64,000 nucleotides of DNA, taken from positions 1-64,000 of the forward strand of contig JAFYYA010000058.1 of the NCBI GenBank assembly GCA_017557785.1, given 5' to 3'. The position numbers were made by a program, and so were the translations under genes. Positions 29,709 to 48,103 of the stretch are shown piece after piece. The DNA comes from Salinivirgaceae bacterium (GTDB taxonomy: Bacteria; Bacteroidota; Bacteroidia; Bacteroidales; SZUA-534). Under the pieces are notes generated by a model, which was given only the letters and a program-made list of their open reading frames with translations, ran no database searches and was not told where the DNA came from. The first letter of the stretch is position 1. The number at the start of each line of letters is the position of its first letter.

Positions 29709-29747
29709 AAAAAACGAAGCCGGACCATAAAGCCCGGCTTTCGTTTT
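29709..29747 (-). terminator. Terminator of the giant T9SS cargo gene
   Basis: AAAACGAAGCCGG at 29711-29723 pairs with CCGGCTTTCGTTTT at 29734-29747 (one bulge). On the minus strand the hairpin is followed by six T. The 3' arm overlaps the last two bases of the stop codon. Confidence 0.85.
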
Positions 29748-32700: not shown

Positions 32701-35700
32701 CACGCCATCGTTGCAAATCTGTTGCAAGTTGGTTGTTGTTATGGCAGCAATTACACCCGCAAAACCGAAAGTGAAAATGTAATTGTCTTCTTCAACGGTG
32801 GCATTGGTTGTCAGCATACCAGATGTGACGTTTCCGCTTGCGGTGGCTTCGCGCACATTCCACATCGATGATCCATCGTACTCAACTATTTTCAGTCGTT
32901 GCTGAATCAGCGGGTAGGTGTTGAACATATCGCATGACTGGTCGTCCCAACGCAGGCCTACTTTTGCCTTACCGCCAGTGGGGCGAGTCACTACCCAGTA
33001 TTCGTTTTCGCTTATATTTTTGATAGTCAGAGAGTCAAAGCCCGCAGTTGAATTGATGGCCACCTTCGGATTATTATTGAAATACTGTGCCGTCCAATTG
33101 TCCGTAGTGTTCACATTTGTAAGTTTGACATTACCGTAACGGTCGCCATTGCCGACGGGGAAGTTGAAACTGCCACCCGAACTGATTTTTTTGGTCAACG
33201 GACCATCGACAAACGAATTCGCACCACCACCCGAAACCACATTCTGATTGGTGTTTGTCAGATAGATGAGTGCGTCGCTGTTGGTCAGGAAATTGCCGTT
33301 GGTCAGTGTCAGATTGTTGGCAACGACAACATTTTTATTTGCTGTGCCGCCGTTGGTTACGTCAACACCCTGAGCGTTGTCAATCTGCACGTTATAGAAG
33401 TTTGCATCTACATTGATGTCAATCTTCTGCATTCGAGTGCCAACAAAAATCACATTACTTGTTCCACAAATGTAACCGCAATTCTCACTATTCAAATCAA
33501 TGAAATCACCGCCAAGGTAGAAGTCGCGGTTATAAGTTGAGTTGTTAAGCTTGTTCCCGTTTTCGATGGTGATGTTGCCCCTGACATATAAAGCGCTTGC
33601 GGTTATGTTTTTTGTTCCGCCACCGCTCAAGCGGATATTTGGGAACGGATTGTCATAGTTACCTGGTTTAGCAGGCAGTACGGCACTGTTGCTGCCGTTG
33701 AATTCGATTGTACTGGTGGCAGTGCTGAAGAAATCGTCGTACTTGCCGGCCGGCACCATGAACGAATAAACGCCGCCACCACTGATTTCACCAAGTTTCA
33801 ATGTTCCTCCACCCATCACAATTCCAAAGTTATGTCCAATGGTTGAACCAGCGTCAAGCGTTGCGCCTGTCTGGATGTCGACGCTATAAGCGCATTGTGG
33901 TTCGTTACCATCGATTGTGATTGTGTGGCCGCTGCAAATAGTAAGTGGGTTGCCGCTAGGCGGTAGTGTTGCTGTAACATCTTGTCCGTTTTCGTAGTAA
34001 AACCACGATGAAGCATCTACCCAACGACCGTTTTCTACACGGCTGAAGTATGGCGGCAGTTGCGAGTAGGCTGGGAATCCAGCCGTAAATTCACCGTCAA
34101 CCACATCTATTCCGGCAATCACAAATTTGTTTTCATCGGCATCAACCGAGCCTTCCGTACTATAGTGTTCCCATACTGCGTCATAATAACGCTGGGGAAC
34201 CATACCTGTTTCCGCATCGCCAGCACCCAAAGTGAGCAGGTCGTCGGTATAGTAATATTCGTGCGTCACAGCGTAGTCCGACAACCCTTCTGAACTTGCC
34301 GCCCAATAATAGCTCAAGTATGTGGTTGGCATTTGCGTCCGGTTGGCGTGAAGGTTGTTCATCAGTCTGATGTTGATGTAGCCGTCGGCACTTGTTACAG
34401 CCGATGTGAAGTTGTATTTGACTGGTGTGTACTGTCCAGGTATACCAATGCGGTACAGGAATTCGCCGCTGAATCCGTTGGCGAAATACTTACGCACACC
34501 AGCATCACCAATTGCACCGTTCAGGATTATCATTCCTGTGCTAGCCTCGGCAAATGATGCGTCGGTCATAAGGCTGAGCCGATAATCGTTGGCATAGATG
34601 TCGTCGTTAAGTGTAATGAGTCCTGTCACCGAAATGGGGTTTTCCATGTCGGTTTGGTTATCGATAATCAGATTGCCATAAGTGCCCGATTTGCCCGACG
34701 ATGACATCATCTTGTGTATCCCGTCGCCAACGAAAAACAATCCACCGCCAGCCTCGCTACTGATGTGGCGACTATCGTTAAGCACGCTCGCATAGGCGTT
34801 GATGTGGTTGCCAGCATCGTCGAACGCTCCACGGCTGATAGTCAGCAGACCATTGCAATTAGCGGTGATGTTGCTGAGTTGCACCGTTGTCGGATTGCTG
34901 ATGGTGAGTTTGGTAAAATTGATGTCGTTGCCATTGCCTGTGATTTTCTGTACAGCAGTGCCATCGAACGTGACGAGTTGCTCCTCTGTGCCAGCCGCAA
35001 ACCCTGCGTTGGTGCGGCATTCAAGGTCGCCAGCAATGTTGGCATTGTAACCGTTGGCGTCAAAAACCGAACCGTTGTTTATTTTGAGTGAGCCATTGAT
35101 GTCAACGTGGTTTGTAACCAGCTTCAAAGTCTGCGGGGACGCGTCGGTGCCAACCTCCACATTACCCAATTCTGCCGATGCGCTCATGTAGAATGTCTGA
35201 TTAGAAGCGGTGGTGGTGTTGCCGATTGCCAAAACACCGCCCGTTGCACTTGATGTTGCCGGTGCAAGAAGAATGTCTGCCTGATTAGCATCGTTCAGCG
35301 AGCCACCTGCAATGGTGAGCGTTCCGCCGCTCATTGTGAAACTTCCTTCATTGCAAATGTCGATGACAGCGCGGTGCATCGATGCGTTCTGGTCACGGTT
35401 TTTACCAAATATTATCACATCACCGCCCGACTGCGAGTAGTGCAGATTGACGGGTGTCATTGTGTATGGTCTGCGGATTTGTCCGCCAACAGAAAGCAAA
35501 CCGCCTTGAACATCAATCTGCGCTTGCGCCGATGAATATTCAATATCATTGCCGTAATTACCGTTGCCAATGAGCATAGAGCCTCCTAAAACTTCAATTT
35601 TTCCGTGCAGCACCACGTTGTACTGTTGATTATTAGTGTTGCATACACGGAATATTCCTGATTTAGTTGACAGACATGCGCTTGACCTGATTTCAAAATT

Positions 35701-38700
35701 ATGATTCGTGGTTATTTCAATGTTGACATCCCCATCGGCACGGAATGTTCCGTTGAGCAGATTAAGGAAGACGCCGTCTTGTGGGGTTGCCTTGATGTTT
35801 CTCTCAATCGACAGCACAGGTGTGGCATCAGTGCCTTTGTCGCAGGTCAGAGTGTAGAGTGTGATTTCTCCTGCTCCTTTGATGGTATCGTTGGCTGTGC
35901 CAGTGAAGGTTGTGGCAACTTTCTGGTTGACATTGTCTTTTGTGAATGTGATGGCACCATCGGATACCATGTTACCGTAAATGGTGATTTGGTTTGCAAA
36001 AACGCCCGCTTCTCTGTCATAGTTTTGACTCGCTTTTACGTCCAAAAGTGCGTTAGTGGATATATTCACATTCCCTTTTACAACTACATTTTGCGGACGT
36101 GCCGAGTATGTGTATCTCGGTCTGTTACCAGTACGAACCACGTCACTGTTAAACGCCAGTATGCCGCTTTCAACCGTCAAATCTCCATCAATGGTAACTG
36201 TGCGTGTTGTGTTTCCTTTGCAGAATTTGTTGTAATGCGTGTCGTTGCCGTTTTTTGATGTCAGATTTCCGAATATTTCAATATCGGCATCAGGCATGGT
36301 TACGGCATGGTCGTTAGAAGCTACCAGCGTCAGATTGTTGTATGTTGAGACAGTGGTTGGAATGGTAATGTCTCTTTCCGATGCATTATACTCAATTGTT
36401 CCGCCACCCGTGCTCAAGAATTCGCCGAAATCGCCGTCAGGAAATTTATTAGTGGTGCGGATGATAATGGTACCCATTACGTCACCGTCGTCATTTTTGG
36501 TCAAAACACCCAAGTTGTGACTTTGATTCTCATTGGTTCCCAAGTCAAGCGTTGCGTCTTCAGCAATAGTCAAACTACCGCAGAAAGCATTGTTCTGCGC
36601 CGTAATCTTATGGTCATCGCCAATTATCACAATGGTGTTTAAATAAGGAACGCCAGGATTCCCAAAATCATCTACCCAAGTTGTAGAGTTGTTCCATAAA
36701 CCATCACCTACGCTGTAGAGACGGATTGGTGTCTGTGTGAAAGCATTTAAAACACCGCAAGTAAAGTCGCCGTCAATGGCGGAACAGCTTTCCCATTCAA
36801 AACGATCATCGTTTTGAAAAACAAGCGATGTGTTGTCGTTATAATACCACATGCCTGCTTTGTAATAGGCTGGTACATAAGTGGCTTCGGCGGTTCCAAC
36901 AAAAGTTTGCTCATATTTATATGTGTGGTTGACCGATGTTACACCATCAAAGCCACTGCTAGTGTTGTGCCAATAGCATTTCAGCACATCTGCGTCGCCG
37001 AACACATAGTGCTTCCCGTTTACAGGACGGCTTGTAACAGAACCATAAGTTGTCGGCTCAACATCAACCGCAATGTTTGCTGGCAGATAGTTACCATCGA
37101 ATCCAAATGGGAACAGATAGTTGTCAGTTGTGCTGAAAAGCCTTGTAATACCACCATCGCTGCTGTGGCCGGCTGTTTGAATCATTCTGCTGGCACTAAA
37201 GTCGTTAATGCCGGTTGTTGCGTTAGAATAAATGGCAGCATCAGCATCGCACAGGTTCAAGTTGTAGGTACCGATGTTGAGATTGTAGTCGCTCAATAGG
37301 CGCAGATTGCCAGTTACAGCCATGTCAGCAGTTGCAGTTACCGTGCCGCCATTTTTGCTTATGTGCAGGTTGTTGAACGAGCCATGGCCGTCGCCGCCGA
37401 TGGTCTGATTCCCATTGCCATCAAGCAGGATGCATCCTGTCGACGATGCCGAGTTGTAGTGTGTTCCGCTGTTGCTGACAATGTTGCCTCTTACGGTGAG
37501 CGTATGCTGCTGGTCATAGAAAACGGAGCCTTGCTCAAGTGTCAGCGTTCCGCGCATGAGGGCATCGTTTTGCAGACTCAGTTGAGCGTTTTCGGCCAAC
37601 GTCAGGTTGTTAAGACCGTTGGTTACAGTACCACCAATGGTGAAATTTTGCACCGCACTGCCGTTGAAGTACGTTGTGTTGTTGCCAGGCGTGTATGTGC
37701 CAGTGTTTTCGATGGTGAAATTACCGCCAACGTACACATTTTCATCATTTGCAACCAATGTTCCGTTGTTTTTGATTGTCAAATCGTTCAGCACAACAAG
37801 CGGTTGAACGGCGACATTTGCGCAGCCATCCTCATTATTTGGTTTGGTGAATGCCTTAACTTGCACTCTGTTTGCCGCCGCTTCAGCTTCGATTTCCAAA
37901 TTCCAGAATGGTGCTGTACTGTTGATGTAGAACTCACTATTTGTACCACCCCAATTTTTGCAGAGCAATTTTACGGTTCCGCCGGTTATGCTGCAGTTGT
38001 CAATATTTGTTCCTAGCACAAGGGCAAAATGGTTGGCATTTCCACGACTTGTGCCTTTTTCTATTATGAGTTCACCGCCATGCATATTGAAACCACCATC
38101 AGGATATGTGAGTCCGAATGTTGGGAAATTATCTTTACCGGGGTCGTTACCAGTAAATATGAGACTTCCACCGTTTATTGTCAGTGAGCCGACATGTGTT
38201 CCCGTTGCTTTTGATGTGCGCAGCATATTCGACTTTATTTCCCCGTCATCAAGAGTGATGTTGGCTGTTGTACGGTAAACAATACCTTGGTTTGTTGTTG
38301 CGTCCAGTTTACCATTCGTCACCTTCAAATCACCATGCACGTATAGGGCAAAGCAATCGCCTGCGTCCACAGTTACAGTTGCGCCATCAATCCACAAGCA
38401 GGCTGTTTCATCAATTTTGTAGCCATAATTGTTTCCTTGCATTAGTCCATTAATAACGATGTTCTGCCCTAATCTTACTGTTCCAGCTTCAATGGCTAAT
38501 GCCAGAAAATAATCAGATGTTGCATGACTTGCTCCATTATAGTGCCAGCCAGTGCGCGGACCGAGCAGGAAGAATTGGTTGAGTGCCGACGCATCGATAT
38601 TAAGCACGTGGGTTTTGTCGATTCCTTTCTGAACCCTTATAGTGTGAAACTTTGTAATGTCGTTTATCCCGACGTTTTGGTCACCAGTTGTTTTGGTGAA

Positions 38701-40647
38701 AAACACGTTGGTCACATTGCTGGGAGTGGCAGAGTAATTAATGGTAGCATTTCGTTGGGTGAAATAAACTTCACCATTATTGGTGAAATTACCCTGCAAT
38801 TCAAGTTTGTGGCCTTTGGGTGTTATTGTGGTAAGATTATAGCTGCCATTATTGGCACGCGCATAAAAATTATAATTAGCTGTAGAACCCTTAGACCCAA
38901 CAGTTGAAGAGCCTGTTGTGATAGAACCATTCCGACTAACTGTCAAATCACCGCATATAGTGATAGTACTGCCTTCTATATCCGCTTCACCGTTAGTCCC
39001 GATTTGGAAAGTTCCTTTGCTTATGGTGAGATTGCCGTTTGTCTTAAGGTTGTCTTCATCCAATATGGCAATGGCATTATCAGCAAGATTTAAAATCAAA
39101 TTGTTATAGATGGTGGTCCCCGAAGAGCCACGTTTTGGCATAGTAAAACTGTTTTCGTTGCAGAACTCAACTGTGCCGCCTCCACTTCGGACAAAAGTGG
39201 TGTATGTGCCGCCAGGGAATTCGGCCGACGCCAGTTTCAACGTGCCTTGTCCTTTAACTGTGCCCAGGTTGTGGCCTGTGGTTTCACGCAAATCCAACAC
39301 GCCGCCATCGTTGATGGTAAGTGATTTCAGAAATATTCCGCCTGCTGTAACGGTTATAATATCTGGGTTTTTGATAACCACGCGCGAGCCTTCGGATGGT
39401 CCTGTAGTGGGAATGTTGGCACCAGTCCGATCGATTCCGGCAGGGTCAAAAGTCCACGATGTGGCATCTTCCCAGTTGCCGCTTGTGAATGAGTAGTAAG
39501 TGGTTATGTCTTCGCAAGCCGACCACTTGCCAGATGGTGTGCAATGATTGAAAGTGATTGTTTTGTCGGCTTTTGTGTAACTGCCATCATCCCATTTTTT
39601 CCATCCCGAACCCGAATTGCAGAAAGGTTGCAGGTCGGGTGAGCCTGTGGGTTCGTCTGCCGGAAGATGCTCAAACGTCAGTTGGGCATCGCTAATGTTT
39701 TCCGATACGGTTGTCCAATAGCATTGGAGGTCTGTCTCGATGCCCTTGGCCGATACTCCGTTAGTCGGACGCACGCTGAACGAACTTGCAGCCGTGGTTG
39801 AGGCATCTATGGTTACCGGACGGTAATTGGTATTGACGACGCCTATAGGAATAGTTCCACCGTTTAGTCGCGAAACATCGCCTTTGATGGTCACAAATCC
39901 ATGGGTTGTCTGACTTTCAAAAGAAAAACCATGGCTGGATCCGAAAGGTACGGCGCTTGTAATGATTGCCGAGCTTTCAATGGTGAATGAGTGGTCTCTC
40001 ATTCTTATTCGGTTATTGCTGTCCCATGTCAAAGAACCAGTTACTATTACATCGCCGCAAAGTTCAACTGTACCTGTTCCTTCAATGGTTAAATTAGTGT
40101 ATGTTCCGCCTGGGATAGAAGATGTGGCGGTATAATTGGTTGTTATCAAATTGAAATTTCCGCACAACTGTCGGTCCATATTGTCGATTATCAGTGTGCC
40201 CGAGAACCCATCCAAGTTACAGTTTAATGACCCGTTTTCAATAATAATAGTACCCGTACCAGTGATTCTTGGATATGTGGTAGAATTGCTAACATTGTGT
40301 ATTGTAATAGTTCCATCAACATTTAAAGTTGTGTTGCGGCCACTAATACTTAAATCTCCACCAATATTAAGAGATTTCCCTGCAGGCACTGTTACAGCAC
40401 CATTCGAGAGTGTGAAGTTATTACATTCCGCATCGATGTTGATTGTGAGAGTATAGCCGTTTTTATCGACCGTAACGTTATCGCTGCTTGTTGGTATCGT
40501 GCCCCAGGCATCATCCCAATTGCAATCTTGTTCGGGCATTGAAAACGATGCCCCCAAAACAACATTAGCCACCAACATGAAGCCAGCCAAAAACAATAGT
40601 TTCTGAGCCGCTCTGCCTATTCCGAAATTTAATGCTGACTTTTTCAT
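29746..40647 (-). CDS. Giant secreted repeat protein with T9SS type A sorting domain
   Basis: A 3633-aa protein, predicted to be exported by Sec, then across the outer membrane by the type IX system and attached to or released from the surface. An N-terminal signal (about 1-33) is followed by beta-solenoid-like sequence arranged in large paralogous blocks. Each block opens with a W-D/N-x-x-x-W motif (WEDATSW near 390, WNNSTTW near 1314, WVDASSW near 2206, WGDADNW near 3097) and continues with GHNLG...GTLKL and GGGTIEF-type strands. Two of the blocks end in a YW...SD-type domain and DGDFTCG/DGEFTAG-like strands. Residues about 2590-3060 contain Ig/PKD-like modules (SFMWRWEGDG; YTWTVDGQQKG). 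The C terminus carries a fibronectin-like segment and the sorting domain (APNPTNGLFRISASG ... IDISDLPDGIYILRF ... QQKVVKY). Base composition is more AT-rich than the neighbours. Probable adhesin or S-layer-like structural protein; ligand unknown. Confidence 0.88.
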   Translation of the reverse strand: MKKSALNFGIGRAAQKLLFLAGFMLVANVVLGASFSMPEQDCNWDDAWGTIPTSSDNVTVDKNGYTLTINIDAECNNFTLSNGAVTVPAGKSLNIGGDLSISGRNTTLNVDGTITIHNVSNSTTYPRITGTGTIIIENGSLNCNLDGFSGTLIIDNMDRQLCGNFNLITTNYTATSSIPGGTYTNLTIEGTGTVELCGDVIVTGSLTWDSNNRIRMRDHSFTIESSAIITSAVPFGSSHGFSFESQTTHGFVTIKGDVSRLNGGTIPIGVVNTNYRPVTIDASTTAASSFSVRPTNGVSAKGIETDLQCYWTTVSENISDAQLTFEHLPADEPTGSPDLQPFCNSGSGWKKWDDGSYTKADKTITFNHCTPSGKWSACEDITTYYSFTSGNWEDATSWTFDPAGIDRTGANIPTTGPSEGSRVVIKNPDIITVTAGGIFLKSLTINDGGVLDLRETTGHNLGTVKGQGTLKLASAEFPGGTYTTFVRSGGGTVEFCNENSFTMPKRGSSGTTIYNNLILNLADNAIAILDEDNLKTNGNLTISKGTFQIGTNGEADIEGSTITICGDLTVSRNGSITTGSSTVGSKGSTANYNFYARANNGSYNLTTITPKGHKLELQGNFTNNGEVYFTQRNATINYSATPSNVTNVFFTKTTGDQNVGINDITKFHTIRVQKGIDKTHVLNIDASALNQFFLLGPRTGWHYNGASHATSDYFLALAIEAGTVRLGQNIVINGLMQGNNYGYKIDETACLWIDGATVTVDAGDCFALYVHGDLKVTNGKLDATTNQGIVYRTTANITLDDGEIKSNMLRTSKATGTHVGSLTINGGSLIFTGNDPGKDNFPTFGLTYPDGGFNMHGGELIIEKGTSRGNANHFALVLGTNIDNCSITGGTVKLLCKNWGGTNSEFYINSTAPFWNLEIEAEAAANRVQVKAFTKPNNEDGCANVAVQPLVVLNDLTIKNNGTLVANDENVYVGGNFTIENTGTYTPGNNTTYFNGSAVQNFTIGGTVTNGLNNLTLAENAQLSLQNDALMRGTLTLEQGSVFYDQQHTLTVRGNIVSNSGTHYNSASSTGCILLDGNGNQTIGGDGHGSFNNLHISKNGGTVTATADMAVTGNLRLLSDYNLNIGTYNLNLCDADAAIYSNATTGINDFSASRMIQTAGHSSDGGITRLFSTTDNYLFPFGFDGNYLPANIAVDVEPTTYGSVTSRPVNGKHYVFGDADVLKCYWHNTSSGFDGVTSVNHTYKYEQTFVGTAEATYVPAYYKAGMWYYNDNTSLVFQNDDRFEWESCSAIDGDFTCGVLNAFTQTPIRLYSVGDGLWNNSTTWVDDFGNPGVPYLNTIVIIGDDHKITAQNNAFCGSLTIAEDATLDLGTNENQSHNLGVLTKNDDGDVMGTIIIRTTNKFPDGDFGEFLSTGGGTIEYNASERDITIPTTVSTYNNLTLVASNDHAVTMPDADIEIFGNLTSKNGNDTHYNKFCKGNTTRTVTIDGDLTVESGILAFNSDVVRTGNRPRYTYSARPQNVVVKGNVNISTNALLDVKASQNYDREAGVFANQITIYGNMVSDGAITFTKDNVNQKVATTFTGTANDTIKGAGEITLYTLTCDKGTDATPVLSIERNIKATPQDGVFLNLLNGTFRADGDVNIEITTNHNFEIRSSACLSTKSGIFRVCNTNNQQYNVVLHGKIEVLGGSMLIGNGNYGNDIEYSSAQAQIDVQGGLLSVGGQIRRPYTMTPVNLHYSQSGGDVIIFGKNRDQNASMHRAVIDICNEGSFTMSGGTLTIAGGSLNDANQADILLAPATSSATGGVLAIGNTTTASNQTFYMSASAELGNVEVGTDASPQTLKLVTNHVDINGSLKINNGSVFDANGYNANIAGDLECRTNAGFAAGTEEQLVTFDGTAVQKITGNGNDINFTKLTISNPTTVQLSNITANCNGLLTISRGAFDDAGNHINAYASVLNDSRHISSEAGGGLFFVGDGIHKMMSSSGKSGTYGNLIIDNQTDMENPISVTGLITLNDDIYANDYRLSLMTDASFAEASTGMIILNGAIGDAGVRKYFANGFSGEFLYRIGIPGQYTPVKYNFTSAVTSADGYINIRLMNNLHANRTQMPTTYLSYYWAASSEGLSDYAVTHEYYYTDDLLTLGAGDAETGMVPQRYYDAVWEHYSTEGSVDADENKFVIAGIDVVDGEFTAGFPAYSQLPPYFSRVENGRWVDASSWFYYENGQDVTATLPPSGNPLTICSGHTITIDGNEPQCAYSVDIQTGATLDAGSTIGHNFGIVMGGGTLKLGEISGGGVYSFMVPAGKYDDFFSTATSTIEFNGSNSAVLPAKPGNYDNPFPNIRLSGGGTKNITASALYVRGNITIENGNKLNNSTYNRDFYLGGDFIDLNSENCGYICGTSNVIFVGTRMQKIDINVDANFYNVQIDNAQGVDVTNGGTANKNVVVANNLTLTNGNFLTNSDALIYLTNTNQNVVSGGGANSFVDGPLTKKISSGGSFNFPVGNGDRYGNVKLTNVNTTDNWTAQYFNNNPKVAINSTAGFDSLTIKNISENEYWVVTRPTGGKAKVGLRWDDQSCDMFNTYPLIQQRLKIVEYDGSSMWNVREATASGNVTSGMLTTNATVEEDNYIFTFGFAGVIAAITTTNLQQICNDGVSTATIDVSLSGSAPFTLTYSVNGSSRTQPNIGTSPYQIVLNSSQLGSTTGTYDVVLESVSDASGIGTVRPSKGQIEVLTTYTPTFTDGGGVDVAGTGETRTYEVESHNNESSFMWRWEGDGPTIDNPSANPISVTYDSNNNAAKTYYLVVTETTTATGCAISNTLAITVSRTPQPSFIYEPYVCEDESKTYTTANNGGHHYTWTVDGQQKGTDYSLEIDWSEYSAGDHIVKVEERNGTGRRPPTGEYQKTITVFAKPNSAEILPIDPICSGTATTVTLGPTESNVTYKLYRRGNKTALNTFSGHDGENRHFTTPTITAVGNIEFYAVATNPGCSVLIPEVTPPSSTDTSFVTLVVNETPNVTLNWPILYAGVESEVTLNDVVGAPLTTYRVNYTPGGTNESGNVSDGIKVTATGDIAGTITINNEYCSVDIPFNETMADGYVWSGAASPEWGDADNWFSGAIPTSEHDAIIRHSENNEPEIWASAEAKSVKIESGVLTINDDKTLDVYGNWQNDVGDEGFVGNSSTVAFKNNAEISGSTTFNTISAESGNTLTINNNGYVTVNGDVENAGTLIGSEGSTLEMAGSSNTKLVGGTYNLANLKINKTSDTVTVNTELKVDGEFAIYGGVLNMDGNMLTLGSNATTSFDNDNTTAYVDGTMTKIGTEPIVFPIGNNGRRAMVGIEPGVANASTKFTAGYTYVPKDPNAAPTTPDPMDARMVRVSKMDNWQITGSNGSSAKVTLYWDDGSISEITKLESLTIAHWNGSQWEMLASDAHGSPDKGYIQTTTAVTSFSPFTFGSTEVEDNPLPIELVDFTGRQTDNSIELEWTTQSESNNDYFEIERSTDGVNFVTIGFIQGAGNSDQPLNYQFTDGEPVSGYAYYRLSQVDYDGTRSYADKVIAIYYSSNEIDNLTVAPNPTNGLFRISASGSMAGGIIELLSQAGRVIRIVNVDDYDATIDISDLPDGIYILRFRTSSQILQQKVVKY

Positions 40648-40828: not shown

Positions 40829-43800
40829 TCAATCCTTCTTCCGCAAAATATAAATCGTATTCGATGTGTAGCGGTCGTTCTGAATGGTCTCAACGGTCAT
40901 TCCGAGTGCGGCGGCAATTTGGCGCATACGCGTTTCCGACAGGAAGCAGAGCCGCTCTTCGGTCTTGTTGAACTTGATGATGCGCGTCGACATCAGTTCG
41001 GTGAAGCGCGTCAGGCGGTGGCGCTGCTGCTCTTCGGTGTTGCCGTCGCGGATGATAATCTGGCCGCCGTCGGCAAGGGCTGCCACGCACTTCTCAATCA
41101 GTTGCTGCTGATGGTCGGCGCTCATATAGTGCAGCATATCGTTCATTATGAACACATCGCTCTGCGGCAGCGGATATTCGAGCGCATTGGCCTGCTCGAA
41201 CCGCAGATGGCAGTGCTGGCGAAGCCAGCCGTGCTGTGCTACGGCAATCTTGTCGTCGTCGTAGTCGATGCCCAGAATGTCGCGGTCGGCCGATGTCTGC
41301 GCAAGCATATAGCACAGCGGGCCGAAGCCGCAGCCAATGTCGGTGATGCGGGCGCGGCGCGGTATCAGTTTGTCGAACAACTCGTAGTTGCCTTCCATAC
41401 GGATTTTCACGCGCAGGTACCACTCTTCGACAGGCCCTTTGAAGATGAAATTATGCATTATGCGGCTGTGGATGGCTGTGCTCGACGTGGTTGTAAGTTC
41501 GTCGTAGAGTTTCTGGTATTCGGCTTTGAACCAGGCCGATATGCGTTTGGTGCGTTCCTGATAGGTGTCGCCCCACGAGCGGTCGGTGTGGCTGATGCGC
41601 GGCAGAACGCTCACCACAATCTTTCCGCGCCGAACCATAAACGGCTGGTTTTTGGGTATCACGTCGCCAGTGCCGTAGAGCAGCACGGGCACAATATCGA
41701 GTTCGAGAGTGTCGGCAAGCATAAACGCGCCTTTGTGGAAGCGCCCGATGCGTCCGTCGGTTGAGCGTGTGCCTTCGGGGAAGATGACCACCGAAAAGCC
41801 TTCGCCGATGCGCTGCCGCACCGTTTCCTGATTCAGTTCAACGCCGTCGCCCGTGAAGATGAATCCCGCATAGCGGATGAGTCCGCCGAACACAGGCGAC
41901 CGCCAGACCCATTTGTTGGTCACCATCACCACGCGCGGCGACAGGGCCAGCATCGACAGTATGTCCATAAACGACTGATGGTTGGCGATGACAACGGCGG
42001 GGCGATTGAAAACTGTGCTGTCAACGAGCCGTTTGCTGTACCGCACCTGTCGCGACACAGAAAAAACAAATCGGCACGCCAGGTTCATTAGTCGGCAGAT
42101 GAGCCGCCGCTTCCATATCCGCCTGACGGGCACCACATACATCACGAAAGTGAGCAGCCGCAGCACGATGCAACTCAGCACAAAGGCGCCGAAACCGATG
42201 AAGGTCAGCAGCACGTCGGCCACGGTGTACGGCATATTGCCCTTTGCGGCGGGGTTGGCAATAAAGAAGTTGAAGATGATGGGCTGAATGGTGAAGGCCA
42301 CAAGCACCACGGCCAGCATTCCGAACACCGAAAGCAGTGAAATGGACTGTAGCGCAGGATGTTGCGCGAACACCAGCGCGCCCATTCCCACCACAATGGT
42401 GAAGGCTGAGCAGAAGATGGCCGTTTTGTGTGAGTCAAGTGTCTGACGTCCAGTGCGATACTTGCTCTGCAAGCCGTCCATTATGAAGATGCTGAAATCG
42501 TCGCCAATGCCGAAGATGAAGGTGGAAAGAATGATGTTGATGATGTTGAACTCGATGCCGAACAGCCCCATCATTCCTAAAATGATGAACCAACTGATGA
42601 GCATCGGCAGAAAACTCATCAGCGTGAGTTCGAGCCGACCGAACGAGATGAGTAACGCAAAGAAAATCAAGAACGAAGACGTGAACAGAATCCAATTGAA
42701 GTCGTCGTTCACAGCGTCAATCCATTGGCCAGTGAAGAAGGCGCGGTCGAAAATCACCATATCGCGGTTGTCGCCCATCAGACTGTAAACCTGTTGTTTG
42801 CATGTGTCGGCCAGCCGCACTTGAGTGATGAGCATCTTTGAGTTGTCCGAAGGTACTTGCCATTCCTGCATCAGCGTTCCGAAAGGACCGTCGGCGCGGC
42901 TTAGGTCCACGGGCTCGAAATCACCATCGAACCATCGGTGGAAAGTGTTGAAAGCGTTGGCTTTGAAGTGATATTTTTCGGCTTCGCTCTGCAGCGATTC
43001 GTTCAAAAGTTGTCGACGTTCAGTTGTCCAGAAATCGCGCCACAGCGCAATGCGCCGCCGTTGCTCGCTGGGGCTCACCACAAATCGGCTGGCCGATGCG
43101 TAGTCGCGAATCAACCCCGCCTGCTGCAGGCTGTCGAGTCGGGCGTTGATGCGGTTGTAGACGGTCAGCACCGAATCGTCGGTGGGGGCCACGCTCACAA
43201 ACATCACTGTCTTCTCATCGCCGTCGTAGTATGATTCCAACTTCTCGCGGGCCGCTTTCAGGTGCTCGGGCTCGTAGTACATATCCATCAGGCTGCTGTT
43301 GAAGAGCACGTGGCCCGCGGTGAAGCAACTCACCACAATCACAACCAGCAGCGCGCCCACCAGCCAGCGGTTCCGCTCGTAGTGATAGGCGTTGATTTTT
43401 TCGATGAACCGCAGCATCCGTCCGCGTTTCACATCGGCCTGACCTTTAAGGAAATGTGGCAGAAAAATCAGGCAGAAAAGCGTGGTGCCGATGAGCGTGA
43501 GTGAAGCGAAAAGCCCGAAATCGCGCAGCAGCGCCGACGATGTGAAAATCAGAGCAAAGAACGCGCCAATGGTGGTGAAACTGCCCACCGTGAGCGGGTA
43601 GGCCAGTTCGTCGATGAGTTGCTCGACAGTGCGCACGTGGTTCTGGTGCGCCAGCATATGGATTGAGTAACTCAACGCAATGCCGATGACCGCCGCGCCC
43701 GCCCCGATGGCTATTGATGAGATTTCGCCTTTCAGCAGGGCAATGAGCGCCAGTGCGAAAAGACAGCCGAAAAGTGCGGGGACGATTATCAGCGGAACGG

Positions 43801-44674
43801 TGCGTTTGCGTTTGAAAATGAGCGAGATGAACACCACAATCACAATCAGCGCCACGATTGAAGTCAGGGCGGTGTCGTTCTTGATTTGCCGCGCGTTGTA
43901 GACGCTCACCGACGCCCCGCCGAAATATTCGGTTTTGACGCCCGTGTGCATCTTGTTCATTTTGTTGATGTTATCTTCGATAATATTTACAAGTCCTTCG
44001 TTTTCACCAATGCGGCCCATATTGTATTTTGGCGTCAGCACCATCATCAAAGTCGATGTGTCGGCGGTGAACAGGTAACTGTCGACCACCACATTGTCCG
44101 ATTCTATCTCGAAATCTTGCAGATTTTCAAGTGTTTGCAGACCCATCCCCATCGGGTCGCGCAAGATGAACTGCCGTGAGCCCACACCGATAGGCGACAC
44201 CAGGTTCTGATAGTTCTGGCGCATACGGCTGGCAATGCCGTTGCGGGTGATGACGGTGTCGAGCCGCACATAGTCACTGTCTGTCAGGAAGATGGGCAGA
44301 TGCGCGTAGACGAAATCGCTCACGCCGCCAATCATCTGATTGTCGATGCGCAGCAGGATGCCGCTCAGGTAGTCGGCGGCTTCGTTTTGAAGTGTTTGCT
44401 CAAGTTCTTCGGCCGCCTGAATCAGACTGTCGGCAGGCTCGTTGGCGCGTGGCGAGAAAAGTACCACAATCTTGTCCTTAACGTTCAGATTCTGAAACAC
44501 TTCGGCAGTCTTGTCATTGTCGCCCGCCGCAGGAAAGAAATCGGTTACGTTCTGCCTGAAACTGATTCGCGACACAGCCACGGCCATCAGCGCAATGCTG
44601 ACCACCAAAAAACTGTAAAACAGCACCTTGCGATGTTCGAAAAAGTGATAGAGACCTATGAATATTTTGCTCAT
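40829..44674 (-). CDS. MMPL/RND-type lipid exporter fused to acyltransferase and methyltransferase
   Basis: A 1281-aa three-part protein. Residues 1 to about 770 form a two-repeat MMPL/RND transporter: membrane helices, extracytoplasmic loops, and repeated helix bundles such as IAIGAGAAVIGIALSYSIHM and IIKLSTFIFGIGDDFSIF-like segments. Residues about 840-1050 are a PlsC-type acyltransferase with H(x)4D in NHQSFMDIL (near 896) and FPEGTRS (near 963). Residues about 1090-1281 are a SAM methyltransferase with ITDIGCGFGPLCYM (near 1110) and LGIDYDDDKIA. The set suggests acylation, methylation and export of a lipid or polyene. The start at 44674 is chosen because a -7 box (44719-44726) lies inside the longer frame. 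It is followed downstream by the giant gene, and preceded by GT2-DUF2062, a small exported protein and LolA-like genes. Confidence 0.85.
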   Translation of the reverse strand: MSKIFIGLYHFFEHRKVLFYSFLVVSIALMAVAVSRISFRQNVTDFFPAAGDNDKTAEVFQNLNVKDKIVVLFSPRANEPADSLIQAAEELEQTLQNEAADYLSGILLRIDNQMIGGVSDFVYAHLPIFLTDSDYVRLDTVITRNGIASRMRQNYQNLVSPIGVGSRQFILRDPMGMGLQTLENLQDFEIESDNVVVDSYLFTADTSTLMMVLTPKYNMGRIGENEGLVNIIEDNINKMNKMHTGVKTEYFGGASVSVYNARQIKNDTALTSIVALIVIVVFISLIFKRKRTVPLIIVPALFGCLFALALIALLKGEISSIAIGAGAAVIGIALSYSIHMLAHQNHVRTVEQLIDELAYPLTVGSFTTIGAFFALIFTSSALLRDFGLFASLTLIGTTLFCLIFLPHFLKGQADVKRGRMLRFIEKINAYHYERNRWLVGALLVVIVVSCFTAGHVLFNSSLMDMYYEPEHLKAAREKLESYYDGDEKTVMFVSVAPTDDSVLTVYNRINARLDSLQQAGLIRDYASASRFVVSPSEQRRRIALWRDFWTTERRQLLNESLQSEAEKYHFKANAFNTFHRWFDGDFEPVDLSRADGPFGTLMQEWQVPSDNSKMLITQVRLADTCKQQVYSLMGDNRDMVIFDRAFFTGQWIDAVNDDFNWILFTSSFLIFFALLISFGRLELTLMSFLPMLISWFIILGMMGLFGIEFNIINIILSTFIFGIGDDFSIFIMDGLQSKYRTGRQTLDSHKTAIFCSAFTIVVGMGALVFAQHPALQSISLLSVFGMLAVVLVAFTIQPIIFNFFIANPAAKGNMPYTVADVLLTFIGFGAFVLSCIVLRLLTFVMYVVPVRRIWKRRLICRLMNLACRFVFSVSRQVRYSKRLVDSTVFNRPAVVIANHQSFMDILSMLALSPRVVMVTNKWVWRSPVFGGLIRYAGFIFTGDGVELNQETVRQRIGEGFSVVIFPEGTRSTDGRIGRFHKGAFMLADTLELDIVPVLLYGTGDVIPKNQPFMVRRGKIVVSVLPRISHTDRSWGDTYQERTKRISAWFKAEYQKLYDELTTTSSTAIHSRIMHNFIFKGPVEEWYLRVKIRMEGNYELFDKLIPRRARITDIGCGFGPLCYMLAQTSADRDILGIDYDDDKIAVAQHGWLRQHCHLRFEQANALEYPLPQSDVFIMNDMLHYMSADHQQQLIEKCVAALADGGQIIIRDGNTEEQQRHRLTRFTELMSTRIIKFNKTEERLCFLSETRMRQIAAALGMTVETIQNDRYTSNTIYILRKKD

Positions 44675-44718
44675 TGCTCGTGTGTCCCGTTTGGGAAAAT
44701 CTTCAAAAGAATTTTCGG

Positions 44719-44726
44719 CAAAAGTA
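44719..44726 (-). promoter_or_regulatory. Candidate -7 promoter box of the MMPL fusion gene
   Basis: On the minus strand TACTTTTG, an exact TAnnTTTG match, 45 bases before the ATG at 44674. No -33 box is clear. Confidence 0.45.
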
Positions 44727-44770
44727 ACCAATTAGGCTTAAAAACAGAATCTTGTTCACCTTTATTTCCG

Positions 44771-44900
44771 CGCTGTAAGCGTAACTTATATTATGGCATT
44801 TTTATGATTTGCCCCTGTAGGGCGCCAATGTTGCGCTGCAACGTTACCCAAGGCGCCGCTTCGCTTGCCTTTGGCTATGTTGTCATTGCGCTTTCAGCGC
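44771..44900. repeat. Intergenic cluster of short palindromes
   Basis: The gap between the glycosyltransferase and MMPL genes holds several GC-rich palindromes: CGCTGTAAGCG at 44771-44781, CCCTGTAGGG at 44813-44822, GTTGCGCTGCAAC at 44830-44842, and GCGCTTTCAGCGC at 44888-44900 (two bases before the TAA stop of the glycosyltransferase). Such spacing resembles REP/MITE-like or processed RNA elements. None has a T-tract typical of a terminator. No coding potential seen. Confidence 0.5.
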
Positions 44901-44901
44901 G

Positions 44902-46104
44902 TTAGTGATTGCCAGCCCGTTTTTTTCTTCTAAACACCGTCAGTAGCCCCAGCGCCACCGCGCCCACAACCACGCTGCATAAGGCCGCAAACACAATGCT
45001 TCCGACAATGTACGGCAGCAGCGAGTGCTTGACGCTTTCGAGCGTGATGTTGCTCAAAGTCAACTCTATAGGCACTTGCAGAACCTTGCAACCTGTGTAG
45101 TAACTGCCGTAAATCAGGAACGGCAGCATTGGCGGAATACTGATATTTGACGCCACAAGTGTCAGTATCTTGTTGACTTTCAACAAATGAGCAATGGCAA
45201 AAGCAACAATCATCTGATAGCCCCAAATTGGGACAATGCCCATAAAAATGCCCAGCATTACGGCAGCCGTGATGCGCAGATTGGAATCGGGCGAGTGGGT
45301 TATGTTGTCGCTGATGAATTGTTTGATGTTCTCGCGGGTGAGTTTTCGGCAGAAGTTGCGTGGATAAATCCATAGCAGCGCAATCAGCACCAGCACAGTG
45401 TTCAAGATGCTGATGCGTGTGAAGTCGCGGCCAGGGCGGAAGTGCGAAACTCGTTCACCTTCAGGCGGATAATAGACGTGAACAGGAATGTTTCTGACCG
45501 CAACACCGCCCCACGATGCAAACACCAGCGCTTCCAACTCAAACTCGTATTTGGCTGTGTAATACCATTTTTGCACATTCATTTGCGTCAGCGGGTAGAG
45601 CCTGTAGCCCGATTGAGTGTCGGGCAAGTTGATGCCCGTCTCAACCTTGAACCAGAAGTTCGAGAATTTATTGGCGAAGGTGTTTTTGCCAGGCATATTG
45701 TCGGCCTGAATGTTGCGTGAGCCAACAAGCAGATTGTCAGGCGTCTGCTCAATCTCGTTGACAAATGTCGGGATGTCCGATGCAAAGTGCTGCCCGTCGC
45801 TGTCGATGGTGATGGCATAGCGGAACCCAGCCGCTTTGGCGCGGCACAGACCGTTTTTCAGGGCCGTTCCCTTGCCGCTGTTGTGCTCGTGAGTCAGAAT
45901 CTCAATACCGTCTATCTGGCTCAGAATCTGTGCGGTATCATCAGTCGAGCCGTCATTGACAACAATAATGTGGTTGGCGTACTGTTTCACATCAGCCACA
46001 ACCTGCCCAATGGTCTTGCAATTGTTGTAGGTTGGGATGACAACCACAATTCCGAGCCTGTCGAGCGCCGCGCGCCAGTCGATATTGTTTTCACTCTGAT
46101 TCAT
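44902..46104 (-). CDS. Family 2 glycosyltransferase fused to DUF2062 membrane domain
   Basis: A 400-aa protein. Residues about 15-240 are a GT2 (GT-A) domain: VVVIPTYNNCKTIGQVV, IIVVNDGSTDDTAQIL, the metal-binding ITIDSDGQHF and LLVGSRN. One membrane helix follows. Residues about 280-390 are a DUF2062 domain with several helices (AVMLGIFMGIVPIWGYQMIVAFAIAHLL). This fusion is common in aryl-polyene/flexirubin and related lipid loci, where it is thought to glycosylate the lipid head. A TTG three codons upstream is rejected because the -7 box overlaps it. Confidence 0.85.
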   Translation of the reverse strand: MNQSENNIDWRAALDRLGIVVVIPTYNNCKTIGQVVADVKQYANHIIVVNDGSTDDTAQILSQIDGIEILTHEHNSGKGTALKNGLCRAKAAGFRYAITIDSDGQHFASDIPTFVNEIEQTPDNLLVGSRNIQADNMPGKNTFANKFSNFWFKVETGINLPDTQSGYRLYPLTQMNVQKWYYTAKYEFELEALVFASWGGVAVRNIPVHVYYPPEGERVSHFRPGRDFTRISILNTVLVLIALLWIYPRNFCRKLTRENIKQFISDNITHSPDSNLRITAAVMLGIFMGIVPIWGYQMIVAFAIAHLLKVNKILTLVASNISIPPMLPFLIYGSYYTGCKVLQVPIELTLSNITLESVKHSLLPYIVGSIVFAALCSVVVGAVALGLLTVFRRKKRAGNH

Positions 46105-46110
46105 AGGGGG

Positions 46111-46118
46111 CAAATATA
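46111..46118 (-). promoter_or_regulatory. -7 promoter box of the GT2-DUF2062 gene
   Basis: On the minus strand TATATTTG, exact TAnnTTTG, ending only six bases before the ATG at 46104. Transcription starting 5-7 bases downstream would give a nearly leaderless mRNA. Upstream lies the repetitive stretch AGGATTTAGGAATTAGG (46122-46138). Confidence 0.5.
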
Positions 46119-46172
46119 TTCAGGATTTAGGAATTAGGGGTTAGGATTTTTTCGAAGTTGGGGTCGCTCGCT

Positions 46173-46697
46173 TCACGAATCCTTCGATCCTTCTTTCAAT
46201 TCTTCAACCGTCATCCGCAGCCTTATCCACGGATGTTTAATCAGCACCTGCTCAACGTTTCCTTCGGCGTTGTAGATTATTGTGTAGACCGATTTGCCGA
46301 ATCCCGTTCCGCTTTTCCGCAGCTCTTTGCCGGGTGTTTGTTTTTTCAGCTTGGCGCGATTGCGGTCCACCAGCAGTACGCGAAGGTCGCGCTCGAGCAG
46401 TTGCAGCACTTTCGGGCGGCGCATCGGCTCAACGCAGCTGTTCACTTTTAGCGAGTCGGGCGTTAAGCTGAAATCGAAGATTGTCGGGCCAAAGTACGAT
46501 GTTGCCAGCACGCGCGGTCCGTTGGCGGTTTGGCGGGCAATCATCATACCGCTCAAGTGGTTGCCACGGGCGTCAACCTGAAGGTTGTGTCGTGCGGTTT
46601 TACCGGGTGCGATTATCGGTTGCGCCCAGCTCGAATGTGCCGCGGCGAGCCAAACAAAGCTTATTGTCAATATTTTGAGTAAGCCGCGGGACATCAT
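46173..46697 (-). CDS. Small exported protein of the lipid-export module
   Basis: A 174-aa protein with a signal peptide (MMSRGLLKILTISFVWLAAA, cleavage after SWAQ). The remainder has beta strands (HNLQVDARGNHLSGMMIARQT, LATSYFGPTIFDFSLTP) and a basic stretch (DRNRAKLKKQ). I do not recognise the family with certainty. Its size, export signal and position between LolA-like and glycosyltransferase genes recall DUF3261 lipoproteins of aryl-polyene clusters, though no lipobox is present. It overlaps the LolA-like stop as ATGA, so the two are translationally coupled. Confidence 0.55.
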   Translation of the reverse strand: MMSRGLLKILTISFVWLAAAHSSWAQPIIAPGKTARHNLQVDARGNHLSGMMIARQTANGPRVLATSYFGPTIFDFSLTPDSLKVNSCVEPMRRPKVLQLLERDLRVLLVDRNRAKLKKQTPGKELRKSGTGFGKSVYTIIYNAEGNVEQVLIKHPWIRLRMTVEELKEGSKDS

Positions 46698-47323
46698 TGC
46701 ATTGAGAAGCGGCTCTCGTCTTTCAACTGATTGAAGCGTTTGTTGGTGAACCGATAATCGGTGTAGTCGGCTTCGTTCTCGTACATCCGCAGTTGGTCAA
46801 CCGACATATCAGCCTTGCTCAACCTAATCTCGATGGCCGACACGTAGTCTTTCACCGCCTTGTTGCGTGGTGTGATGCTGACAATATACTGTTTGTCATC
46901 TTCCTGATATTTAAGGTCGTAGTTGCCGTTCATACGGTTCAAGTCGCCCACCATACAGGCAGTTATCATATCCTGCATCTCGTTCATCATCTTGTTCGAG
47001 TTGAGCTGCATAATGCTTTTCTTGCCGTCGGCCACAATTTTCAGCCTGTTGCCGTTAATCACAATCAGATAGTTCAGCGGCTGCGAGTAGTCGAGACTTA
47101 TCTTATTCTCTTTCAAATAGTAGAACCGCCCTTTCGACACCACGTCTTCGTCAAACATATCGAGATGTTTCACTTGCGTGAAATCGCTCTCAATCGACTG
47201 CAGCTTGCCGGCTGTTTCCTTCAGCTGTGTTTCGAATTTTTGCATATCAGCTATGTCGTGGGGCTGTGCCACTGCTGTCTGCGCCATCAAGGCTGCTGCA
47301 ATGAGTGTCAATAAAGGTTTCAT
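46694..47323 (-). CDS. LolA-like outer-membrane lipoprotein carrier protein
   Basis: A 209-aa periplasmic protein with signal peptide MKPLLTLIAAALMAQTAVAQ. The LolA pattern is clear: KLQSIESDFTQVKHL, KGRFYYLKENKISLDYSQPLNYLIVINGNRLKI, and a half-barrel of strands. LolA-like proteins carry lipid-modified cargo across the periplasm; paralogues inside aryl-polyene-type clusters are thought to carry the cluster's own lipid. It is the first gene of the leftward module and is coupled by ATGA to the next gene. It is divergent from hxpB. Confidence 0.8.
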   Translation of the reverse strand: MKPLLTLIAAALMAQTAVAQPHDIADMQKFETQLKETAGKLQSIESDFTQVKHLDMFDEDVVSKGRFYYLKENKISLDYSQPLNYLIVINGNRLKIVADGKKSIMQLNSNKMMNEMQDMITACMVGDLNRMNGNYDLKYQEDDKQYIVSITPRNKAVKDYVSAIEIRLSKADMSVDQLRMYENEADYTDYRFTNKRFNQLKDESRFSMQ

Positions 47324-47449: not shown

Positions 47450-48103
47450 ATGATAAAATCAGTCATATTCGATATGGACGGCATAATAGTTGATTCGGAG
47501 CCGTTCTGGCGCATGGCCGAGCGTACCGTTTTCGGTAGTAAAGGCATTATGCTGACAGAAGAGTTGTGCCGTTCAACAACCGGAATGCGCCTCGACAATG
47601 TTGTATCTCATTGGAACAGTATTTATCCTGGTCACATTACTGATGAACATCAGACAGCCACTGAAATATTGCAAGAAGTGACGCGGTTGGTAACCACCTA
47701 TGGTGAACCAATGAAGGGTGTTCATCAGGCAGCTCAATTGTTTGCCTCACATGGATGCACCATGGCTTTGGCATCGGCATCGGCCATGTCACTTATCAAT
47801 GCAGTGATAGATAAACTTGATGTACGTCAATATTTTAGCATTATACAATCTGCAGAGAATGTCAAGTATGGCAAACCTCATCCCGAGATTTTCCTTACCA
47901 CTGCAGAAAGTCTCGGCACCAATCCCGAGGAGTGTCTGGTGATTGAAGATTCTATATACGGCGTGATTGCCGGCAAAGCTGCCCGCATGAAAGTTATAGC
48001 TGTGCCCGACAAGGAGTTTGCTGGCCGCCGGGAGTATGGCGTTGCCGATGCAGTTTTGCATTCACTTGCTGAAATTGATGAAGCGTTGTTTAATCAATTG
48101 TGA
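47450..48103 (+). CDS. hxpB: HAD-family hexose/hexitol phosphatase (HxpB-like)
   Basis: A 217-aa cytosolic HAD-IA phosphatase. Motif I is FDMDGIIVDSEPFW (nucleophile D8, acid D10), motif II LASASAMSL, motif III Lys in KYGKPHPEIF, and motif IV VIEDSIYGVIAGKAA. The WRMAE after motif I and the cap sequence resemble E. coli HxpB (YniC), which hydrolyses 2-deoxyglucose-6-phosphate and hexitol phosphates; beta-phosphoglucomutase relatives share the motifs. A one-gene unit with its own promoter. Confidence 0.8.
   Translation: MIKSVIFDMDGIIVDSEPFWRMAERTVFGSKGIMLTEELCRSTTGMRLDNVVSHWNSIYPGHITDEHQTATEILQEVTRLVTTYGEPMKGVHQAAQLFASHGCTMALASASAMSLINAVIDKLDVRQYFSIIQSAENVKYGKPHPEIFLTTAESLGTNPEECLVIEDSIYGVIAGKAARMKVIAVPDKEFAGRREYGVADAVLHSLAEIDEALFNQL

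What the first reader, a model, noticed from the sequence alone, without database searches (positions are those of the whole stretch)
40829..47323. Lipid-export module resembling half of an aryl-polyene/flexirubin cluster, without its synthesis genes
Four adjacent leftward genes encode a LolA-like carrier, a small exported protein, a GT2-DUF2062 glycosyltransferase, and a single protein joining an MMPL transporter, a PlsC acyltransferase and a SAM methyltransferase. In known aryl-polyene/flexirubin loci these activities accompany ketosynthases, ACPs and dehydratases; none is seen in the 64 kb. Either the core is elsewhere, or this is a distinct system that acylates, methylates, glycosylates and exports another lipid to the outer membrane.
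Basis: partly seen in the sequence, partly recalled or inferred. Interest (0 to 1): 0.7.

Follow-up and report, generated by a model that had tools for sequence, protein, structure and literature searches.

The report
Displaced pigment-export half of flexirubin cluster
These four genes are the membrane-export half of a known type of bacterial pigment (aryl-polyene/flexirubin) gene cluster, whose pigment-making half sits elsewhere in the same genome, so this is a known system that has been split up rather than a new one.

Summary
The four genes are real: LolA-like carrier, small LolB2-like protein, GT2-DUF2062, and an MMPL-PlsC-methyltransferase fusion. The LolA scores 220 bits against NCBIfam LolA2_flexi (cut-off 125); the small protein matches LolB2_flexi just below cut-off (54.9 against 60). 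A synthesis core is in the same genome on contig 31: tyrosine ammonia-lyase FlxA (872 bits, cut-off 700), FlxJ methyltransferase, three ketosynthases, a Ketoacyl-synt_2 protein, two ACPs, a weakly FabZ-like protein, thioesterase, LpxL-like acyltransferase and deacetylase. In relatives G038, G039 and Parabacteroides gordonii, core and module lie in one same-strand run in the same order. Among 60 genomes, LolA2 above cut-off, the fusion, and the second-ketosynthase ortholog mark the same 21 and none of the other 39. Mildly unusual: Salinivirgaceae from ruminant samples carry the cluster in two or three blocks in the better assemblies (up to five contigs in others), and their LolB2 lacks the canonical lipobox seen in relatives. 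No DarB-type ketosynthase was found, so 'aryl polyene of flexirubin type' is safer than 'flexirubin'.

The parts
46694..47323 (-). LolA2: periplasmic lipid carrier of the flexirubin/aryl-polyene type (counterpart of E. coli ApeL)
   Evidence: NCBIfam NF053544 LolA2_flexi 220 bits, cut-off 125; Pfam LolA 55.7 bits; family profile vs ApeL of E. coli CFT073 E 1.8e-16 in a set of 18 proteins
46173..46697 (-). LolB2-like small protein; by inspection a signal peptide but no canonical lipobox
   Evidence: NCBIfam NF053540 LolB2_flexi 54.9 bits, below cut-off 60; lies next to LolA2 wherever tblastn detected it; lipobox-like Cys in P. gordonii, Dysgonomonas, a Bacteroidia MAG and G039
44902..46113 (-). 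GT2 glycosyltransferase with DUF2062 domain (GT part corresponds to the N-terminal part of ApeJ)
   Evidence: Pfam 85.2 and 77.4 bits; family profile vs ApeJ E 3.8e-47 over ApeJ residues 7-231, hhalign prob 99.9; DxDGQH in 17 of 17 rows
40829..44731 (-). Fusion: MMPL/RND exporter (about 44677-42251; ApeM-like), PlsC acyltransferase (about 42007-41681; ApeD-like), SAM methyltransferase (about 41347-41063). Probable start ATG near 44674
   Evidence: Pfam MMPL, Acyltransferase, Methyltransf_25; family profiles vs ApeM E 3.4e-26, vs ApeD E 6e-27; 23 loci in named Bacteroidales/Bacteroidetes records at 42-98% identity, 20 of 23 near full length
47450..48103 (+). Divergent HAD-type hydrolase bounding the operon on its 5' side (name by inspection); conserved neighbour of the displaced module in G003, G007, G008, not part of it
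   Evidence: 87% identity at the same place in three genus-mates

Best explanation
The module is the attachment-and-export operon of a flexirubin-type aryl-polyene pathway whose synthesis operon is on contig 31 of the same genome. Likely working (inferred from families): FlxA makes 4-coumarate from tyrosine, and the contig-31 ketosynthases, ACPs, dehydratase and thioesterase extend it to an aryl polyene acid, with FlxJ methylating the aryl head. The LpxL-like acyltransferase (contig 31) and the PlsC domain and GT2 enzyme (window) join the acid to a membrane (glyco)lipid anchor. The MMPL domain lifts the product out of the inner membrane, LolA2 carries it through the periplasm, and LolB2 helps deliver it to the outer membrane. 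The substrate of the fused C-terminal methyltransferase is unknown. In this Salinivirgaceae genus the single cluster seen in relatives has been broken into dispersed blocks, one of which is this operon.
For: Core in own genome: FlxA 872 bits (cut-off 700), FlxJ 623 (560), KS/CLF-type genes, two ACPs, 4HBT thioesterase, LpxL-like AT, deacetylase, and a weakly FabZ-like protein (27.5 bits, cut-off 113). One-piece same-strand clusters in the same order in G039 and G038 and in P. gordonii, FlxA at 2545541 to the fusion's end at 2563834 (numbering agrees between the two fetched stretches, about 1.45 kb between them not read). Same 21 of 60 genomes (11 of 47 genera) carry LolA2 over cut-off, the fusion (E<=1e-40), and the KS2 ortholog (>=45% identity, a line drawn after seeing the table); the other 39 have none at these thresholds. 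In 11 of those 21, KS2 and LolA2 are within 2 kb. Relation of the domains to E. coli ApeL, J, M, D. Published proposals: flxP-flxU (deacetylase, acyltransferase, LolA, glycosyltransferase, exporter) for flexirubin export (PMC3992019, passages); ApeM/L/N for transport and ApeD/J for attachment (PMC8253772, passages).
Against: Core and module lie on different contigs of a draft (94% complete, 7% contamination), so their link in this genome is inferred from relatives. LolB2 is below its curated cut-off and shows no detectable relation to ApeN. Six of the 21 genomes have no full FlxA (G001, G006, G010, G014, G016, G043; G006 has a fragment and is 82% complete), and five have no FlxJ match at E<=1e-30 (G016, G022, G038, G045, G057). 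The contig-31 block holds no reductase or CoA ligase, and its dehydratase matched no Ape protein. A second KS/ACP/MMPL locus exists in the genus, and the module could serve it too. No chemistry is known to me for this genus.
Confidence: 0.9

Rival explanations
1. One reading: a stand-alone lipid-export system that acylates, methylates, glycosylates and exports a lipid unrelated to aryl polyenes.
For: In the window no FabF-type ketosynthase adjoins it; the operon is on a different contig from the core.
Against: Co-occurrence with the KS2 core ortholog in 21 of 21 genomes and absence of both in 39 of 39; one-piece clusters in relatives; LolA2 belongs to the flexirubin-specific NCBIfam family above its cut-off.
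Confidence: 0.03
2. The module serves, or also serves, a second polyene-type pathway of the genus (locus B: KS, two ACPs, a second MMPL), which is why it could separate from the contig-31 core.
For: Locus B in genus-mates has a KS matching ApeR, two ACPs and a second MMPL; an ApeQ-like reductase was found on contig 30 beside a LolA paralog, not on contig 31.
Against: Locus B has its own MMPL, and a LolA paralog exists (115.7 bits against LolA2_flexi); in species with a one-piece cluster the module sits with the core; G016 has a locus-B-like KS and MMPL in addition to a separate block of core genes with LolA2.
Confidence: 0.12
3. The separation is an artefact: the two contigs adjoin, or one belongs to a contaminant.
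For: Draft assembly, 153 contigs, 7% contamination.
Against: Core lies at 17.5-29.6 kb of a 69.5 kb contig and the module at 40.8-47.3 kb of a contig of at least 64 kb, both flanked by other genes. The same two-block arrangement with the same neighbours recurs in G007 (99% complete, 1% contamination; contigs of 176 and 108 kb), and G003 has the TAL block and the module 35 kb apart on one 266 kb contig.
Confidence: 0.04

Closest known systems
Flexirubin (flx) cluster of Chitinophaga pinensis / Flavobacterium johnsoniae
   Same: Tyrosine ammonia-lyase start, type II FAS-like KS/ACP/TE set, deacetylase, acyltransferase, LolA, glycosyltransferase and exporter (functions as listed in PMC3992019, passages; NCBIfam flx families)
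   Different: Here split over at least two loci; exporter, acyltransferase and a methyltransferase are one protein (I did not compare the C. pinensis proteins themselves); no DarB-type ketosynthase III found (only FabH); no reductase or CoA ligase gene in the contig-31 block
E. coli CFT073 aryl polyene (ape) cluster
   Same: Counterparts of ApeL (LolA2), ApeJ (GT2 in the window, LpxL-like AT on contig 31), ApeM (MMPL), ApeD (PlsC), ApeB (FlxJ), ApeE, ApeF, ApeK, ApeO, ApeR, and weakly ApeC, by direct or profile comparison
   Different: TAL start instead of the ApeH/4-hydroxybenzoate start; no window or contig-31 protein matched ApeA, G, H, I, N, P or Q in the direct comparison (an ApeQ-like reductase is on contig 30); fused C-terminal methyltransferase only generally related to ApeB
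One-piece cluster of Parabacteroides gordonii (and Dysgonomonas sp. Marseille-P4677, core genes from AT onward read)
   Same: Same genes and order, fusion 50-51% identical
   Different: Undivided; LolB2 carries a lipobox-like cysteine; in the related G039, G043, G038 and G016 loci a gene of about 123 residues sits between the LolA2/LolB2 end and GT2, which the window lacks

Membership tests
Aryl-polyene / flexirubin-type biosynthetic system | Aromatic start enzyme (TAL FlxA or ApeH-type ligase) | tested here: met
   FlxA on contig 31, 872 bits, cut-off 700
Aryl-polyene / flexirubin-type biosynthetic system | Ketosynthase/chain-length genes, ACPs, thioesterase | tested here: met
   relation to ApeO, R, E, F, K and weakly C
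Aryl-polyene / flexirubin-type biosynthetic system | Dehydratase | tested here: inconclusive
   143-residue protein matches FabZ weakly (27.5 bits, cut-off 113), no Pfam family, no Ape match
Aryl-polyene / flexirubin-type biosynthetic system | Ketoreductase | tested here: inconclusive
   none in the contig-31 block; an SDR on contig 30 (131413-132102), whose identical 119-residue partial in G009 matches ApeQ, lies beside a LolA paralog at a contig end
Aryl-polyene / flexirubin-type biosynthetic system | CoA/ACP ligase for the starter (FlxY/ApeH) | tested here: inconclusive
   8 AMP-binding matches in the genome, none on contigs 31 or 33; not assigned further
Aryl-polyene / flexirubin-type biosynthetic system | Dedicated attachment and export set: LolA, LolB-like, GT, acyltransferase, MMPL exporter | tested here: met
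   window genes; LolB2 itself is under its curated cut-off
Aryl-polyene / flexirubin-type biosynthetic system | Synthesis and export genes inherited together | tested here: met
   same 21 of 60 genomes
Flexirubin in the strict sense | Dialkylresorcinol partner (DarA/DarB) | tested here: not met
   the only PF08541 ketosynthase III in the draft genome is FabH next to a PlsX-like gene; DarA not searched; genome 94% complete
Flexirubin in the strict sense | Orange pigment in the outer membrane | not testable with these tools
   no culture or extract
   0 of 21 module genomes lack the KS2 ortholog

The most novel reading that the evidence does not exclude
In Salinivirgaceae of ruminants, a normally single flexirubin-type cluster is being dispersed into independently placed blocks (two or three in good assemblies, perhaps up to five) while its parts are retained, and the export operon has changed with it: LolB2 has lost its lipid anchor to become a soluble periplasmic relay, and the operon is shared between two polyene pathways (the FlxA core and locus B).
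Probability: 0.12. Interest if true: 0.45.

Novelty: new member of a known kind. Interest (0 to 1): 0.27.

Why it matters
It settles that this module is not a new lipid-export system, and gives a practical rule: a lone LolA2/LolB2/GT2-DUF2062/MMPL-PlsC-MT operon in Bacteroidales predicts an aryl-polyene core elsewhere in the genome. Cluster-mining tools that look for contiguous clusters would see only half here. The dispersed state in one genus and the undivided state in its relatives offer a natural series for asking why biosynthesis and export genes normally stay together.

Tried and rejected
Separate lipid system: rejected by co-occurrence and by one-piece clusters. Full paralogous cluster elsewhere: a second KS/ACP/MMPL locus was found in genus-mates, and a LolA paralog exists, but the window gene is the far better LolA2 (218.9 against 115.7 bits in the own genome), so it does not replace the module. 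Strict flexirubin: not claimed, because the only ketosynthase III found is FabH. Relating LolB2 to ApeN by profile failed (best E 0.19); a structure prediction to test a LolB fold could not be run. Reading the 123-residue gene of the relatives as an ApeI-type dehydratase rests on a motif seen by eye: its homolog in G009 has no Pfam family and no match to ApeI at E<=1e-3. Promoter and terminator scans gave nothing usable (11 promoter-like sites against 6.2 expected, 6 terminator-like against 8.2, and the scan does not model Bacteroidota promoters). Literature: the listings of the searches did not bring up a description of dispersed aryl-polyene loci in Salinivirgaceae or of the MMPL-PlsC-MT fusion; two searches returned no paper. 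Most subscription papers, and preprints, are not held.
Full report
What was claimed and whether it is there. All four are present and the domains are confirmed by Pfam. NCBIfam is more specific. The LolA scores 220 bits against 'flexirubin biosynthesis/transport protein LolA2' (cut-off 125), and the small protein's only match is 'flexirubin biosynthesis protein LolB2' at 54.9 bits, just under its cut-off of 60. Catalytic motifs (named from recall) of the acyltransferase, methyltransferase and glycosyltransferase are intact and kept in all rows compared (24, 24 and 17). The fusion has 13 hydrophobic stretches by a simple hydropathy count.

Where the core is. The window lies on contig 33 of a 3.02 Mb, 153-contig draft. 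Profile PF00109 finds four ketosynthases in that genome: one on contig 81 and three within 8.2 kb on contig 31. The contig-31 stretch (L005) codes, on one strand, for tyrosine ammonia-lyase FlxA (872 bits, cut-off 700), KS, ACP, LpxL-like acyltransferase, a 23S-IVP-type small protein, FlxJ methyltransferase (623 bits, cut-off 560), a weakly FabZ-like protein (27.5 bits, cut-off 113), a 4HBT thioesterase, a 654-residue KS/chain-length-type protein, a second ACP, a second KS (KS2), a Ketoacyl-synt_2 protein and a polysaccharide deacetylase, then an ABC transporter, Dus and EF-G2. This is a flexirubin/aryl-polyene synthesis operon that stops just before the point where, judged by relatives, the export genes would follow.

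Relatives show that the two halves belong together. In G039 and G038 the order TAL-KS-ACP-AT-(MT)-DH-TE-CLF-ACP-KS2-Ketoacyl-synt_2-deacetylase-LolA2-(LolB2)-GT2-fusion runs on one strand of one contig (in G038 the MT and LolB2 were not detected at E<=1e-5). In Parabacteroides gordonii FlxA begins at 2545541 and the fusion ends at 2563834, with the genes read in between in the same order (about 1.45 kb between the two fetched stretches was not read). G043 has KS1, MT, ACP, AT, DH, TE, CLF, ACP, KS2, LolA2, GT2 and an MMPL-PlsC gene on one contig without FlxA. Of 60 genomes (11 of the genus with the own, 9 more of the family, 40 of the order), LolA2 above cut-off, the fusion at E<=1e-40, and the KS2 ortholog (45-100% identity) mark exactly the same 21 genomes, 11 of 47 genera. 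In the other 39 the best KS2 match is the general KS family at up to 36% over full length (39% over a 176-residue piece in G013), and neither export gene is found at those thresholds; G059 has one weak LolA match (21.3 bits). The identity line was drawn after seeing the table, and in some of the 21 the fusion match is partial: cut by contig ends in G004, G005 and G010, ending before the methyltransferase in G020, G022, G043 and G052. Treating genera as independent, which they are not, a perfect match of 11 in 47 has a chance of about 6e-11. In 11 of the 21, KS2 and LolA2 lie within 2 kb of each other; in 10 they do not: the own genome, seven genus-mates (G002-G005, G007-G009), G022 and G052. 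FlxA above cut-off occurs in 15 genomes and FlxJ above cut-off in 14 (16 at E<=1e-30), all within the 21. Against a simple picture, six of the 21 lack full FlxA (G001, G006, G010, G014, G016, G043) and five lack FlxJ (G016, G022, G038, G045, G057), so start and head methylation vary or were lost; all of them still have the KS2 ortholog.

The separation is real as far as drafts can show. In the own genome both blocks lie inside contigs, flanked by other genes. G007 (99% complete, 1% contamination) has the same two blocks on contigs of 176 and 108 kb with the same neighbours. G003 has three blocks, two of them 35 kb apart on one 266 kb contig and the third inside a 166 kb contig. G002 places LolA2-LolB2, GT2-fusion, TAL-KS1, MT and KS2 on five different contigs, where some breaks could be assembly gaps. 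G001 and G010 keep deacetylase-LolA2-LolB2 together but have the fusion on another contig. The divergent HAD gene and the aminotransferase to the right of the window module are conserved in G003, G007 and G008. Record titles show the group: Salinivirgaceae MAGs from sheep, water buffalo and yak stomach samples and one from horse feces, with further homologs in Paludibacteraceae, other Bacteroidales/Bacteroidia MAGs, Parabacteroides and Dysgonomonas. The sample of the own genome is not told; its place in this genus follows and the 97% identical fusions.

Relation to the proteobacterial system. Against the 18 Ape proteins of E. coli CFT073 (the cluster studied in PMC8253772), family profiles relate LolA2 to ApeL (E 1.8e-16), GT2 to the N-terminal part of ApeJ (3.8e-47), the MMPL part to ApeM (3.4e-26) and the PlsC part to ApeD (6e-27). 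In direct comparison the contig-31 acyltransferase matches ApeJ (2.2e-27), FlxJ matches ApeB (1.3e-101), KS, ACP and TE proteins match ApeO/R, E/F and K, and the Ketoacyl-synt_2 protein weakly ApeC (4.9e-06). LolB2 is not related detectably to ApeN (E 0.19), the fused methyltransferase only generally to ApeB (E 3.3e-06), and the contig-31 dehydratase candidate to none. Because the target set is 18 proteins, these are small-database E-values. PMC3992019 (outline and passages) already proposed that flxP-flxU (deacetylase, acyltransferase, LolA, glycosyltransferase, exporter) may export flexirubin, and PMC8253772 (passages) proposed ApeD/J for attachment and ApeM/L/N for transport, with apeD, apeJ and apeR deletions producing late intermediates. 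PMC12940132 (passages) reports an arylpolyene cluster of Bacteroides xylanisolvens with similarity and synteny to the C. pinensis flexirubin cluster, so gut Bacteroidales carriage is known. Passages of PMC10734526 treat flexirubin clusters of Flavobacteriaceae and gave nothing on split loci.

Mechanism, with what is shown and what is inferred. Shown: the gene content, intact motifs, inheritance together with the core, shared order in relatives. Inferred: polyene acid made by contig-31 enzymes is attached to a membrane lipid with help of the PlsC domain, the LpxL-like enzyme and GT2, lifted from the inner membrane by the MMPL domain, carried by LolA2 and received with the help of LolB2. Unknown: lipid anchor, sugar, and the substrate of the C-terminal methyltransferase, which is reached by the matches in Parabacteroides, Dysgonomonas and Paludibacteraceae but not in G020, G022, G043 and G052. 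Only one ketosynthase III, FabH beside a PlsX-like gene in this window, was found in the genome, so a dialkylresorcinol partner is not evidenced, and 'aryl polyene of the flexirubin type' is the safer name.

Verdict. It is a member of a known kind, split in its genome. The dispersal within the genus and the lack of a canonical LolB2 lipobox are small points of interest, the latter resting on sequence inspection alone.

Noticed in passing
window 46173-46697; L077, L083, L079, L049: By inspection, LolB2 of this genus (7 rows) and of G016 has a signal peptide without a canonical lipobox (G001 and G010 have cysteines nearby but not in that context), whereas P. gordonii, Dysgonomonas, a Bacteroidia MAG and G039 have a lipobox-like cysteine; G043 is unclear.
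   Followed up: partly
L107 (G009 contig 13), L108, L109; own genome contigs 34 (end) and 30 (end): A second polyene-type locus in the genus: weakly MarR-like gene, ApeR-like KS, two ACPs, a 143-residue gene without family match, a small gene and a second MMPL. In the own genome only part of that MMPL is seen, at the end of contig 34; a LolA paralog beside an ApeQ-like reductase is at the end of contig 30.
   Followed up: partly
L049:9167-9535, L055:13507-13878, L051:14810-15175, L060:10725-11102: A gene of about 123 residues with a GHFPxxPVVPGV-like motif (dehydratase-like by eye only) lies between the LolA2/LolB2 end and GT2 in relatives and is absent from the window operon; 8 of 11 genomes of the genus (not the own, G001, G006) have a 34-36% homolog, beside the second MMPL where I read it.
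   Followed up: partly
G010 (L112), G001: Genus members without FlxA; G010 has KS1, ACP, AT and FlxJ on one contig, and other open frames of 362 and 390 residues precede KS1 there, so the aromatic start may differ.
   Followed up: no
L005:15291-15659: A 23S-rRNA-intervening-sequence (four-helix-bundle) gene sits inside the contig-31 pigment operon between acyltransferase and FlxJ; also in G007 (63%), not seen at that place in G003 or G039.
   Followed up: no
window 29746-40647: A 3633-residue repeat-rich protein, with a C-terminal end that by inspection resembles type IX secretion sorting domains, directly downstream of the module; related genes (54-61% over the N-terminal 600 residues) at the same place in G003 and G007.
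   Followed up: no
L005:4386-7439: A 1017-residue ABC transporter of the ABC-2/'pigment precursor permease' type (below that family's cut-off) follows the synthesis operon on contig 31, 95% conserved at the same place in G007; whether it handles the pigment is not known.
   Followed up: no
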